Of a DNA stretch of 64,000 nt, positions 50,156 through 62,435 are shown piece after piece. Location of the stretch: the NCBI RefSeq assembly GCF_017876575.1, contig NZ_JAGIOE010000001.1:1860001-1924000 (forward strand), written 5' to 3'. Source of the DNA: Paeniglutamicibacter psychrophenolicus. Lineage in GTDB: Bacteria; Actinomycetota; Actinomycetes; Actinomycetales; Micrococcaceae. Under the pieces are notes generated by a model that saw only the letters and a list, made by a program, of their open reading frames with translations, searched no databases and had not been told where the DNA came from. Within the stretch, counting starts at the first letter, position 1, and each line of letters begins with the position of its first letter. A program made the position numbers and the translations under genes.

Positions 50156-51502
<1,347 letters not shown>

Positions 51503-51534: not shown

Positions 51535-51600
51535 AAGGCCGGGACCGGCAAGCACGAACGCCCAGGGGTTCTGCTTGCCGGCCCGGCCTTTTGCGTTTTT
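51535..51600 (+). terminator. Terminator after gdhA
   Basis: AAGGCCGGGACCGGCAAGCA (51535-51554) pairs with TGCTTGCCGGCCCGGCCTT (51572-51590) with one bulge. TTTTGCGTTTTT follows immediately. Strong intrinsic terminator. Confidence 0.9.
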
Positions 51601-51635
51601 GAGACGTAATGTTTCGCCGGGTCCCGGTGCCGGGT

Positions 51636-51665
51636 TTGTGCTTTTCGAGGACCCGGGGGTACATT
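51636..51665 (+). promoter_or_regulatory. Promoter of the aroF leader
   Basis: A -35-like TTGTGC (51636-51641), an 18-nt spacer, and a -10 TACATT (51660-51665). The leader-peptide ATG is 7 nt further on, so transcription would start at about the start codon. This explains the lack of a Shine-Dalgarno sequence before the leader peptide. Confidence 0.6.
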
Positions 51666-51672
51666 TTCAACC

Positions 51673-51732
51673 ATGACTAATCGTTGGTATGCGTATTTTG
51701 TGTCGGCTCTGGAGGGGCCTAAGACGCGATAA
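51673..51732 (+). CDS. Aromatic leader peptide (aroF attenuator)
   Basis: A 19-codon ORF encoding MTNRWYAYFVSALEGPKTR. The block Trp5-Tyr6-Ala7-Tyr8-Phe9 packs codons for all three aromatic amino acids into five positions. It sits 99 nt before the DAHP synthase start and 8 nt after a promoter -10 box. A ribosome short of charged aromatic tRNA would stall at 51685-51699. It is too short for standard gene finders. I read it directly; translation is unproven. Confidence 0.75.
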   Translation: MTNRWYAYFVSALEGPKTR

Positions 51733-51759
51733 TTTCGCATACCCACCTTCAGAGCCGAC

Positions 51760-51790
51760 AAGGGCCGCAAGCTATTGCTTGCCGGCCCTT
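51760..51790 (+). terminator. Attenuator terminator before aroF
   Basis: AAGGGCCGCAAGC (51760-51772), a TATT loop, then GCTTGCCGGCCCTT (51777-51790), pairing fully except one bulged base. CGCTATTT follows, a weak U-tract. It lies between the leader peptide and the gene. An alternative pairing of 51762-51775 with ATAGCGGCCC (51804-51813) would break this stem. Confidence 0.65.
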
Positions 51791-51830
51791 CGCTATTTCC
51801 AAGATAGCGGCCCTGGAGGAATACGGAGAC

Positions 51831-53012
51831 GTGTCAGCGGGGGCCGCATTGAAACCAATGGGCCCCGCCAAGACGCGCAGGGCCGAAACCGAAAGGCCCC
51901 CAACCATGAGCATCGCAGTCGCCACCGAGTCCCAGCAACGCGCAAACACCAATGAACGCGTGCTGGGCATCACCGAACTTCCCACCCCCGCCGAGCTGGT
52001 CGCCGAACTTCCCGTGGGAGATGCCCAGGGATACCGGATCATGCGGGCCCGGCAGGAAGTCCGCGCCGTGCTCTCCGGCCTCGATGAGCGCCTACTGGTC
52101 ATCATTGGCCCCTGCTCGATCCACGACCCGATTTCCGGGCTTGAATACGCCACCAGGCTCGCCGCAGCGGCCAGGGAGCACGAAGGCGAGCTGCTGGTGG
52201 TGATGCGCAGCTACTTCGAAAAGCCGCGGACCACAGTGGGCTGGAAAGGCCTGGTCAACGACCCGCACCTGGATGGCAGCCACGACATGGCCGCTGGGCT
52301 TCGTGCCGCGCGCGAGTTCATGCTCGCGGCCAGCAACCTGGGGCTGCCGCTGGCCACCGAATTCCTGGAACCGCTCAGCGCCCAGTACCTTGCCGACGTG
52401 ATCAGCTGGGGAGCCATCGGCGCCCGAACCACCGAAAGCCAGACCCACCGCCAACTGGTCTCAGGACTATCGATGCCCGTGGGATTCAAGAACGGCACCG
52501 ACGGATCGGTACAGGTCGCGATCGACGCCTGCCAGGCCGCCGGCGCCCCGCAGTCGTTCATGGGAATCAGCGACGAGGGACGCACCGCCATCGTGCAGAC
52601 CGCAGGAAACCAGGACGCACACCTGATCCTGCGTGGTGGCGCGGACGGACCCAACTTCGCCGCGGAACCGGTGGCCAAGGCCTCGGCAGCCATGGAAAGC
52701 GCCGGCATGAACCCGCGGGTGATCGTCGATGCCTCCCACGCGAACTCGGGCAAGTCCCACGTACGCCAGGGCGAGGTCATTGCGGAATTGGCCGCCCGGA
52801 TTGCCGCAGGTGACCAAAAGATTGCAGGAATCATGGCCGAAAGCTTCCTGGTCCCGGGTGCCCAGAAGCATGACCCGGACACCGTGGCGGCGGGCTCCGA
52901 CGTGCTCTCGGGGCTGACCTACGGCCAGTCCGTCACCGATGCTTGCATGGGCTGGGACGCCAGCGCGGAACTGCTCCAGACCTTGGCAGCTGCGGTGCGC
53001 GCAGCACGCTAG
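51831..53012 (+). CDS. aroF: DAHP synthase (3-deoxy-7-phosphoheptulonate synthase), AroF type
   Basis: The first enzyme of the shikimate pathway, type I. Motifs include VIIGPCSIHDP, YFEKPRTTVGWKG, GVxxAR-like GAIGARTTESQTHR and DASHANSGKSHVRQ. The strong GGAGGA at 51815-51820 points to the GTG at 51831, giving 393 residues, but the first 25 residues are unlike the family; the ATG at 51906 would give a usual 368. The DNA between the two starts can form a 13-bp hairpin (51837-51868). Expression is probably attenuated by the leader peptide. It condenses erythrose 4-phosphate with phosphoenolpyruvate and is usually inhibited by aromatic amino acids. Confidence 0.94.
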   Translation: MSAGAALKPMGPAKTRRAETERPPTMSIAVATESQQRANTNERVLGITELPTPAELVAELPVGDAQGYRIMRARQEVRAVLSGLDERLLVIIGPCSIHDPISGLEYATRLAAAAREHEGELLVVMRSYFEKPRTTVGWKGLVNDPHLDGSHDMAAGLRAAREFMLAASNLGLPLATEFLEPLSAQYLADVISWGAIGARTTESQTHRQLVSGLSMPVGFKNGTDGSVQVAIDACQAAGAPQSFMGISDEGRTAIVQTAGNQDAHLILRGGADGPNFAAEPVAKASAAMESAGMNPRVIVDASHANSGKSHVRQGEVIAELAARIAAGDQKIAGIMAESFLVPGAQKHDPDTVAAGSDVLSGLTYGQSVTDACMGWDASAELLQTLAAAVRAAR

Positions 53013-54906: not shown

Positions 54907-54982
54907 CGTCGAGGCCAGCAGCAGGCCGCCCAAGTGAAACCCCGCGGCGGTGAAGCGGCCCGAACGGACCGGTTGGGACGTC

Positions 54983-55759
54983 ATGAACTCATCAAAGGAA
55001 TCGAGCCAGAACCCCATGTCCATTGAGCACCACCCCGCAGACAGCGACGTGAACGTATCTGCCGACGGCTTCCAGATCGCTGAGGACCTCGGGCCCGGAA
55101 TGGAGCAAGGCCAGCCGCCGACCGGTTCGCTGGCCAGGATCCTTCCGGAGGCGACCCTGGCTCGATTGACGCAGTACCTGCGGGCGCTGAACGCGATGCA
55201 GGCCCGCGGCGCGGAACGCACTTCCTCGGGTGTCCTGGCCGCAGAGGCGGGGGTCAACCCCGCCATCCTCCGCAAGGATCTGTCCCTGCTGGGGTCGTAC
55301 GGGACCCGCGGGGTGGGCTACGTGGTGACCGAACTGACCGAACACATTTCAAAGGCCATGGGCCTGATGCAGCATTGGCGTGTTGCCATCATCGGCGCCG
55401 GCAACCTGGGCCGGGCGCTATCGGGATATGGGGGATTCAGGAGCCGAGGATTTGAAATCGTGGCGCTGCTGGATTCCGCACCAGAGGTTATCGGCACCGC
55501 GGTAGGGGACCTGGAGGTCCAAGACATTGCCGACCTGGACCAGATTCTCGAAGCCACCGATGCCAACATTGCGGTGCTCTCCGTTCCCGGCGCCGCCGCC
55601 CAGGACCTGTGCGACAAGCTGGTGGGCCGTGGCGTGCGCAGCATCCTGAGCTTTGCCCCGGTGGTCCTGCAGGTGCCGTCCGGAGTGAACCTGCGCAAGG
55701 TCGATCTGGCCACCGAACTCCAGATCCTGGCCTACCACGCACAGAACCTGGGTTCCTAG
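54983..55759 (+). CDS. rex: Redox-sensing repressor Rex
   Basis: A 258-residue NADH/NAD+ sensor. The N-terminal winged helix has the recognition helix GVNPAILRKDLSLLGSYGTRG, and the Rossmann domain IIGAGNLGRALSGYGGFRSRG binds NADH. At high NADH it leaves DNA and switches on respiratory genes. The ATG at 54983 is chosen over a GTG at 54950. Rex lies one gene upstream of the cytochrome c maturation genes, which fits a redox link, though I see no Rex box here. Confidence 0.95.
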   Translation: MNSSKESSQNPMSIEHHPADSDVNVSADGFQIAEDLGPGMEQGQPPTGSLARILPEATLARLTQYLRALNAMQARGAERTSSGVLAAEAGVNPAILRKDLSLLGSYGTRGVGYVVTELTEHISKAMGLMQHWRVAIIGAGNLGRALSGYGGFRSRGFEIVALLDSAPEVIGTAVGDLEVQDIADLDQILEATDANIAVLSVPGAAAQDLCDKLVGRGVRSILSFAPVVLQVPSGVNLRKVDLATELQILAYHAQNLGS

Positions 55760-62358: not shown

Positions 62359-62432
<74 letters not shown>

Positions 62433-62435
62433 CAA

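What the first reader, a model, noticed from the sequence alone, without database searches (positions are those of the whole stretch)
51636..51830. Candidate ribosome-mediated attenuator with a Trp-Tyr-Ala-Tyr-Phe leader peptide in front of DAHP synthase
Seen: promoter-like boxes, a 19-codon ORF with W5 Y6 Y8 F9, then stems. GGTATGCG (51686-51693) pairs with CGCATACC (51736-51743). TGTCGGCTCTGGAGG (51701-51715) pairs 14 of 15 with CCTTCAGAGCCGACA (51746-51760). A terminator-like stem follows at 51760-51790, and ATAGCGGCCC (51804-51813) can pair with its left arm. Several of these pairings exclude each other. A single leader testing all three aromatic amino acids before the pathway's entry enzyme is an elegant design. 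Known: attenuators of this kind control trp operons, and I recall an aroF leader in Corynebacterium glutamicum. The arrangement here appears to have its own architecture.
Basis: partly seen in the sequence, partly recalled or inferred. Interest (0 to 1): 0.82.

Follow-up and report, generated by a model that had tools for sequence, protein, structure and literature searches.

The report
Aromatic-sensing leader before DAHP synthase
In front of the gene for the first enzyme of aromatic amino acid synthesis lies a tiny gene with Trp, Tyr and Phe codons and RNA segments that can pair in competing ways, probably a switch that raises enzyme production when these amino acids run short.

Summary
A 19-codon ORF (51673-51732, MTNRWYAYFVSALEGPKTR) precedes a type I DAHP synthase, and the stems are where stated. 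Of 115 family genomes with this enzyme (295 searched), 109 carry an upstream ORF with exact WYAYF; six are variants or frameshifts. TAnnnT ends 6-9 nt before the leader ATG in 115 of 115, so the leader is probably leaderless. The conserved core is an exclusive choice: R (51746-51760) pairs with L inside the ORF (51701-51715) or with M (51809-51819), a downstream copy of L. Both helices, hairpin T and small hairpin H2 show compensatory changes. Modelled stalls at W5 and Y6 give L:R, a ribosome at the stop gives R:M; Y8 and F9 depend on the footprint assumed. L:R, with a Phe codon nearly always 5 nt before it, recurs across much of class Actinomycetes; R:M there is less certain. Unexpected: the Tyr and Phe sensor codons are almost always UAU and UUU, nearly unused in the downstream aroF genes, although this genome has one tRNA for each. 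The output is unsettled: T forms in both modelled states in 11 of 15 genera, and masking of the aroF start is supported in 7 of 15.

The parts
51635..51640 (+). -35-like TTTGTG
   Evidence: TTTG conserved around -37 to -34 from the leader ATG in the pooled table of 115 leaders
51660..51665 (+). -10-like TACATT, 7 nt before the leader ATG, so the transcript probably starts at the ATG (leaderless; inference)
   Evidence: TAnnnT ending 6-9 nt before ATG in 115 of 115 leaders
51673..51732 (+). leader ORF MTNRWYAYFVSALEGPKTR
51685..51699 (+). sensor codons TGG TAT GCG TAT TTT (W5 Y6 A7 Y8 F9)
   Evidence: near-invariant in 112 tabulated leaders; UAU/UUU bias
51701..51715 (+). arm L, inside the ORF; its GGCTC starts 5 nt after the Phe codon
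   Evidence: partly conserved
51746..51760 (+). arm R, partner of L or of M; starts 16 nt after the first base of the stop codon
51761..51789 (+). hairpin T with T-enriched tail to about 51800
   Evidence: 6 of 8 counted pairs show two-sided changes; tail
51791..51809 (+). small hairpin H2 (51791-51796 with 51804-51809)
   Evidence: two-sided changes in 3 of 4 counted pairs in the family alignment, where this genus is out of register; pairing here read by eye
51809..51819 (+). arm M, downstream copy of L, alternative partner of R (51746-51756), one C-A mismatch in this genus
51841..51847 (+). arm X, can pair with 51807-51813 (M:X, H3)
   Evidence: M:X better than shuffles, z below -1 in 15 of 15 genera
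51891..51899 (+). presumed ribosome binding region of aroF, can pair with X or locally (H4)
   Evidence: X with the start region better than shuffles in 7 of 15 genera
51906..53012 (+). aroF, type I 3-deoxy-7-phosphoheptulonate (DAHP) synthase
   Evidence: TIGR00034 460 bits

Best explanation
A ribosome-mediated attenuator for DAHP synthase. Transcription starts at the leader ATG and a ribosome loads on the leaderless 5' end. If charged tRNA-Trp, -Tyr or -Phe is short, the ribosome stalls at W5-F9, just upstream of arm L; L then pairs with R, M stays free and pairs with X, and aroF is expressed. If aromatic amino acids are plentiful, the ribosome runs over L to the stop codon; R, just outside the ribosome there, pairs with M around hairpins T and H2, X is released, and expression falls, in some genera by X masking the aroF start region. 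T with its T-rich tail probably slows or partly terminates RNA polymerase so the choice is made before M appears. Shown here: anatomy, conservation, compensatory changes, exclusivity in modelled states. Inferred: start site, translation, stalling, direction, output, role of T.
For: Leader motif in all 115 family loci, six of them variants or frameshifts. L:R paired in 99.0% of cells with two-sided changes in 2 of 13 pairs; R:M 90.5%, with U-A to C-G changes in 10 rows; T and H2 covary. R pairing downstream of T in the stop state 0.77 against 0.44 for shuffled downstream sequence, above the shuffle median in 109 of 115 and above all ten shuffles in 77. States, mean over 115, 7-nt pad: L:R 0.93-0.94 for stalls at W5, Y6, Y8 and 0.79 at F9; at the stop L:R 0.00, R:M 0.77. 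The last sensor codon sits 5 nt before L: Phe in 112 of 115 family loci; looser pattern 37 of 42 named and 21 of 28 class loci, control inside the gene 0 of 42. R begins 14-23 nt after the first base of the stop codon in 115 loci (in L157 the stop position was assumed), so a ribosome at the stop leaves R free. Outside the class, L057 folds as L:R antiterminator against a U-tailed terminator.
Against: With 12 nt past the A site, stalls at Y8 (L:R 0.36, R:M 0.47) and F9 (0.03, 0.72) no longer give mainly L:R; F9 fails already with 10 nt (0.14), and in the window's own sequence with 7 nt (0.24). Opening energy of the aroF start does not differ between states: 106 leaders, mean 0.19 kcal/mol, 41 rise and 39 fall by more than 0.5. 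In genus alignments, g8 keeps the start-region hairpin when R is masked, g10 then pairs M with the start region, and g24 shows no R:M in the consensus. X with the start region is better than shuffles in 7 of 15 genera. Outside the family R:M is beyond shuffles (z below -2) in only 9 of 24 loci. No expression data. The default without a ribosome would be ON, unlike E. coli trp (recalled).
Confidence: 0.5

Rival explanations
1. Same switch, opposite wiring: a ribosome stalled at Y8/F9 masks L, R pairs with M and aroF is ON; after release L:R plus M:X form and it is OFF, as in the 1:2, 2:3, 3:4 scheme of trp.
For: With a 12-nt footprint, F9 gives R:M 0.72 and L:R 0.03; M:X is better than shuffles in 15 of 15 genera; in g10 free M pairs with the aroF start region; Phe limitation is the reported signal in C. 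glutamicum (PMC11802643).
Against: Stalls at W5 and Y6, as conserved as F9, leave L:R at 0.93 or more with every footprint tried; a ribosome at the stop would also give R:M; I saw no U-run after M:X, and its best partner reached the start region in a minority of loci in 13 of 15 genera.
Confidence: 0.23
2. T is the regulated intrinsic terminator and the switch is classical transcription attenuation.
For: T fraction 0.42 in the 12 nt at the end of T against 0.18 background; a Mycobacterium version (L019) is called terminator-like by the scan; control in C. glutamicum is described as transcriptional.
Against: T forms at 0.98 or more in both states in 11 of 15 genera; R:M can only form after RNA polymerase has passed T; I found no conserved helix overlapping T; the scan flags T neither here nor in L101.
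Confidence: 0.2
3. The leader peptide itself is a nascent-chain sensor that arrests the ribosome in response to a metabolite.
For: Peptide nearly invariant within the family.
Against: The constraint includes third codon positions; class-wide the motif changes to YWRF, RYPYF, WYRRF, YRWF, keeping aromatic codons and the L arm rather than a peptide.
Confidence: 0.04
4. The R:M/T/H2 junction is a ligand-binding riboswitch and the ORF is secondary.
For: Compact junction with short linkers in the family alignments.
Against: No Rfam match; leader ORF and promoter geometry as conserved as the junction; R shared with an arm inside the ORF.
Confidence: 0.03

Closest known systems
Corynebacterium glutamicum AroR leader of aroF (cg1129; Neshat et al. 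2014, not read; seen through passages of PMC11802643, PMC4046766 and PMC3890552)
   Same: Leader peptide with aromatic residues before a DAHP synthase of an actinobacterium; said to respond to Phe limitation.
   Different: Phe-Tyr-Phe, no Trp mentioned; Tyr said to have no effect. Its RNA was not available here, so L, R, T, M could not be compared.
E. coli trp/phe/his ribosome-mediated transcription attenuators (details recalled)
   Same: Sensor codons in a short ORF; a ribosome decides between exclusive RNA helices.
   Different: Here no U-tailed terminator was found among the exclusive helices; the hairpin with a T-rich tail lies outside the competition; probably leaderless ORF; three amino acids in one cluster.
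trp attenuators of Corynebacterium and Streptomyces; leuA LEU element (PMC1262725, first part read)
   Same: Actinobacterial amino acid leaders with complementary segments that take part in more than one helix.
   Different: Trp or Leu; that paper reports no conserved structures upstream of genes of other amino acid pathways.
ilvB-II motif of Corynebacterium (PMC10272879, abstract and passages)
   Same: Conserved uORF in an actinobacterial biosynthetic leader with alternative stems.
   Different: Branched-chain residues; its stem P2 is followed by uridines and takes part in the switch.

Membership tests
Ribosome-mediated transcription attenuator (trp type) | Short leader ORF rich in codons of the pathway's products | tested here: met
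   109 of 115 exact WYAYF, six variants or frameshifts; that it is translated was not tested
Ribosome-mediated transcription attenuator (trp type) | Mutually exclusive helices whose choice depends on ribosome position | tested here: met
   Covariation and constrained folds in the family; Y8 and F9 depend on the footprint assumed
Ribosome-mediated transcription attenuator (trp type) | One of the exclusive helices is an intrinsic terminator with a U-run | tested here: not met
   No U-run seen after R:M or M:X; T has a T-rich tail but no conserved competing helix was found
Ribosome-mediated transcription attenuator (trp type) | Expression rises on starvation for the sensed amino acid | not testable with these tools
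   needs experiment
C. glutamicum AroR/aroF attenuator | Leader with aromatic codons before a DAHP synthase gene | tested here: met
C. glutamicum AroR/aroF attenuator | Phe-Tyr-Phe leader | tested here: not met
   WYAYF here; FYF as reported in PMC4046766
C. glutamicum AroR/aroF attenuator | Shared RNA arms L, R, T, M | not tested
Any Rfam 15 RNA family (T-box, leader and riboswitch families included) | Match at gathering score in the leader | tested here: not met

The most novel reading that the evidence does not exclude
An undescribed RNA switch, spread over much of class Actinomycetes, that gates entry into the shikimate pathway by reading how fast single tRNAs decode wobble codons: the sensor codons are UAU and UUU, almost unused in the aroF genes, with one tRNA each in this genome, so sensitivity would come from wobble decoding or anticodon modification rather than from competition between isoacceptors; the ribosome on a leaderless ORF toggles R between L and M, and control falls after T, mainly on translation.
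Probability: 0.27. Interest if true: 0.75.

Novelty: new variant of a known kind. Interest (0 to 1): 0.6.

Why it matters
DAHP synthase is the tap of aromatic metabolism, and C. glutamicum is a production host. A widely shared leader gives a control point and a candidate RNA family. The codon bias makes a clean test possible: published theory explains codon choice in attenuators by selective charging of isoacceptors (PMC1183508, passages), which should not apply where one tRNA reads both codons (one tRNA-Tyr and one tRNA-Phe gene in this genome). Swapping UAU for UAC would show whether decoding speed itself is part of the signal.

Tried and rejected
Rejected or weakened. (1) Masking of the aroF start as a general output: opening energy does not shift consistently, X with the start region is better than shuffles in 7 of 15 genera, and genera g8 and g10 fold against it. 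(2) T as the switched terminator: forms in both states in 11 of 15 genera; lower in g7, g21, g23; in g18 the script took too long a hairpin for T and ended it beyond M, so its T and R:M values (0.0, 0.02) are not usable. (3) Local hairpin L0 inside the ORF: 91.7% paired but no covariation. (5) Start at GTG 51831: absent in some of the genus (by eye). (6) Low G+C for a leaderless 5' end as the cause of UAU/UUU: other codons of the same windows are T-ending only as CGT, 16 of 135. (7) Dead ends: Rfam with permissive filters; paper searches beyond C. glutamicum. (8) A covariance model was considered and not built.

What was dropped. Alignment A1 holds 75 of the 115 leaders (quota per genus, identical ones dropped) plus L005, L011, L012; frameshifted L141 and L157 were left out. 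In A1 genus g1 is one column out of register at T and H2, several g24 rows at M, and L098 at M, which lowers the counts (and of T). In one search the number of pair types does not exceed shuffles (62 of 500 reach it). One search dropped 9 of 115 whose R or stop did not fit its patterns; one search dropped 1; one search tabulated 112 of 115. In one search L241 was scanned over the wrong stretch; rescanned, still a miss.

Full report
Observation. The region folds far better than shuffled sequence (z -7.1). No Rfam family matches it at gathering score; four weak permissive matches look like chance.

Conservation of the leader. In the family, 115 of 295 genomes searched have this DAHP synthase at E 1e-100 or better. 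I read the upstream region of all 115 (loci). 109 have an ORF with exact WYAYF; of the six others two are WYSYF, one each WQAYF, WYAYL and WYANF, and L157 has the motif but a frameshift after it. L141, counted among the 109, is also frameshifted after the motif, with the RNA arms kept. All 115 have TAnnnT ending 6 to 9 nt before the leader ATG; no Shine-Dalgarno consensus stands out in the pooled position table, though single leaders were not scanned for one. The leader is therefore probably translated from a leaderless end. The 18-base sensor stretch occurs once in the window's genome, allowing two mismatches. In an order-wide draw 30 of 396 genomes match it within two mismatches; the 20 exact matches are all in family f1 and the inexact ones were not followed.

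RNA anatomy. The part of the leader just after the Phe codon is arm L; after the stop comes R, a hairpin T with a T-rich tail, a small hairpin H2, then M, a second copy of L. L:R and R:M exclude each other. On 78 aligned leaders L:R is paired in 99.0% of cells and R:M in 90.5%; slid versions of the two whole structures (L:R with T; R:M with T and H2) fall to 37-61% and 37-53%. L:R shows U-A to C-G changes in 17 rows; R:M shows U-A to C-G changes in 10 rows, in genera g7, g8 and g18; in L011 L, R and M change together. T and H2 have two-sided changes in 6 of 8 and 3 of 4 pairs. These counts are of sequences, not independent events. Shuffling only the region downstream of T lowers R pairing with it from 0.77 to 0.44; the real value exceeds all ten shuffles in 77 of 115 genomes and their median in 109.

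Ribosome states. Everything up to a chosen distance past the A site was held single-stranded. With 7 nt, stalls at W5, Y6 and Y8 leave L:R (0.93-0.94) and a ribosome at the stop gives R:M (0.77). Y8 falls to 0.79 with 10 nt and 0.36 with 12; F9 gives 0.79, 0.14 and 0.03 with 7, 10 and 12 nt, and 0.24 with 7 nt in the window's own leader (first version). I favour the small value because the Phe codon sits 5 nt before the arm, a spacing like that between a -1 frameshift site and its stem (recalled); this is an inference. R begins 14 to 23 nt after the first base of the stop codon, 96 of 115 at 16 to 18, so a ribosome at the stop leaves R free.

Output. M:X is better than shuffles in 15 of 15 genera (mean z -1.9) and X with the aroF start region in 7 of 15 (mean -0.8); five genera are single genomes. 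Alifold of eight genus alignments without L gives R:M with T in seven (not g24); with R masked, several free or re-pair M with X, but g8 keeps its start-region hairpin and g10 pairs M with the start region. The modelled opening energy of the aroF start does not differ between states: mean 0.19 kcal/mol, 41 of 106 up and 39 down by more than 0.5. T forms in both states at 0.98 or more in 11 of 15 genera. I therefore commit to the exclusive switch, to its direction with moderate confidence, and leave transcription or translation open.

Beyond the family. Of 42 loci that I took as actinobacterial from the titles of the 80 best named relatives, 37 have an aromatic codon, up to two others, a Phe codon, 5 nt and a G+C arm; the misses are L020, L031, L053, L054, L074; the same pattern inside the gene occurs in 0 of 42. 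Several of the 42 are Micrococcaceae and overlap the first set. In 24 loci outside the family duplexes L:R (-23 to -39 kcal/mol) and R:M (-17 to -42) were computed; against 60 shuffles each, L:R has z below -2 in 20 of 24, R:M below -1 in 17 and below -2 in 9, and near zero in L025, L036, L039, L047, L056. So L:R is class-wide on this evidence, R:M only in part (clear in Dietzia L010, L016, L037, in L044 and L011). In a class-wide draw 37 of 197 genomes have the enzyme at 1e-60; 28 of the 35 not already seen were read, 21 have the pattern, and the 7 misses are all family f35. Outside the class, L057 (Chloroflexi), L062 and L071 (Myxococcota), L054 (Rubrobacter) and L053 (an Actinobacteria MAG) carry aromatic leaders with U-tailed hairpins; I regard these as different RNAs.

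Sensor codons. In 112 tabulated family leaders every Tyr codon is UAU (223 of 223) and 110 of 111 Phe codons are UUU, against UAU 2 of 158 and UUU 4 of 216 in 30 aroF genes of the family. In 47 leaders from elsewhere in the class (some from near-identical strains) UAU is 58 of 61 and UUU 45 of 48, against 3 of 199 and 7 of 339 in the first 900 nt of their aroF genes. Other codons in the same windows end in T only as CGT, 16 of 135. All 58 tRNA places of the window's genome were read: one tRNA-Tyr (GUA), one tRNA-Phe (GAA, one gene seen in three overlapping loci) and one tRNA-Trp gene. Selective charging of isoacceptors, the published reason for codon choice in attenuators (PMC1183508, passages), would not explain the bias; slow wobble decoding is my proposal, untested.

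Literature. In the listings seen, the only leader in print before a DAHP synthase was that of C. glutamicum aroF (FYF; named AroR in PMC11802643): passages of PMC11802643, PMC4046766 and PMC3890552. Neshat et al. 2014 was not read. Searches were (20 of 37 listed; 12 of 70 listed), 55 and 56, plus on codon choice (10 of 26 listed); other listed papers were not opened. PMC1262725 (first of three parts read) states that no conserved structures were seen upstream of genes of other amino acid pathways in Actinobacteria. PMC4833913 and PMC2965389 have no occurrence of aroF or aroG in the main text. PMC10272879 was seen as abstract and passages.

Verdict. Real and conserved; a new variant of ribosome-mediated attenuation, not shown to be a classical transcription attenuator.

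Noticed in passing
51535-51600: Inverted repeat AAGGCCGGG..CCGGCCTT with tail TTTTGCGTTTTT after the NADP-specific glutamate dehydrogenase gene (50159-51502), a likely terminator whose T-run is interrupted, like the tail of T.
   Followed up: no
51815-51831: GGAGG inside M followed by an in-frame GTG at 51831 would extend DAHP synthase by 25 residues; absent in some of the genus.
   Followed up: partly
L141 and L157 upstream regions: Two leaders with a one-base insertion or deletion after the Phe codon that keeps the RNA arms but changes the reading frame.
   Followed up: no
L057, L062, L071, L053, L054 upstream of the match: Aromatic leader peptides (YYGYWYFF, FFWFGYW, FEFWFGYW, FYERFYYR, FHERFYYRF) with U-tailed hairpins before DAHP synthase in a Dehalococcoidia MAG, two Myxococcota MAGs, an Actinobacteria MAG and a Rubrobacter MAG.
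   Followed up: partly
L020, L031 and the seven f35 loci (L231, L233, L236, L241, L245, L251, L255): Actinobacterial loci, seven of them one family, that have the enzyme but not the leader pattern.
   Followed up: no
G000:C1:3689075-3690367: The genome also has a type II DAHP synthase (PF01474).
   Followed up: no
54950-55759: Redox-sensing repressor Rex.
   Followed up: no
62359-62433: tRNA-Met gene.
   Followed up: no
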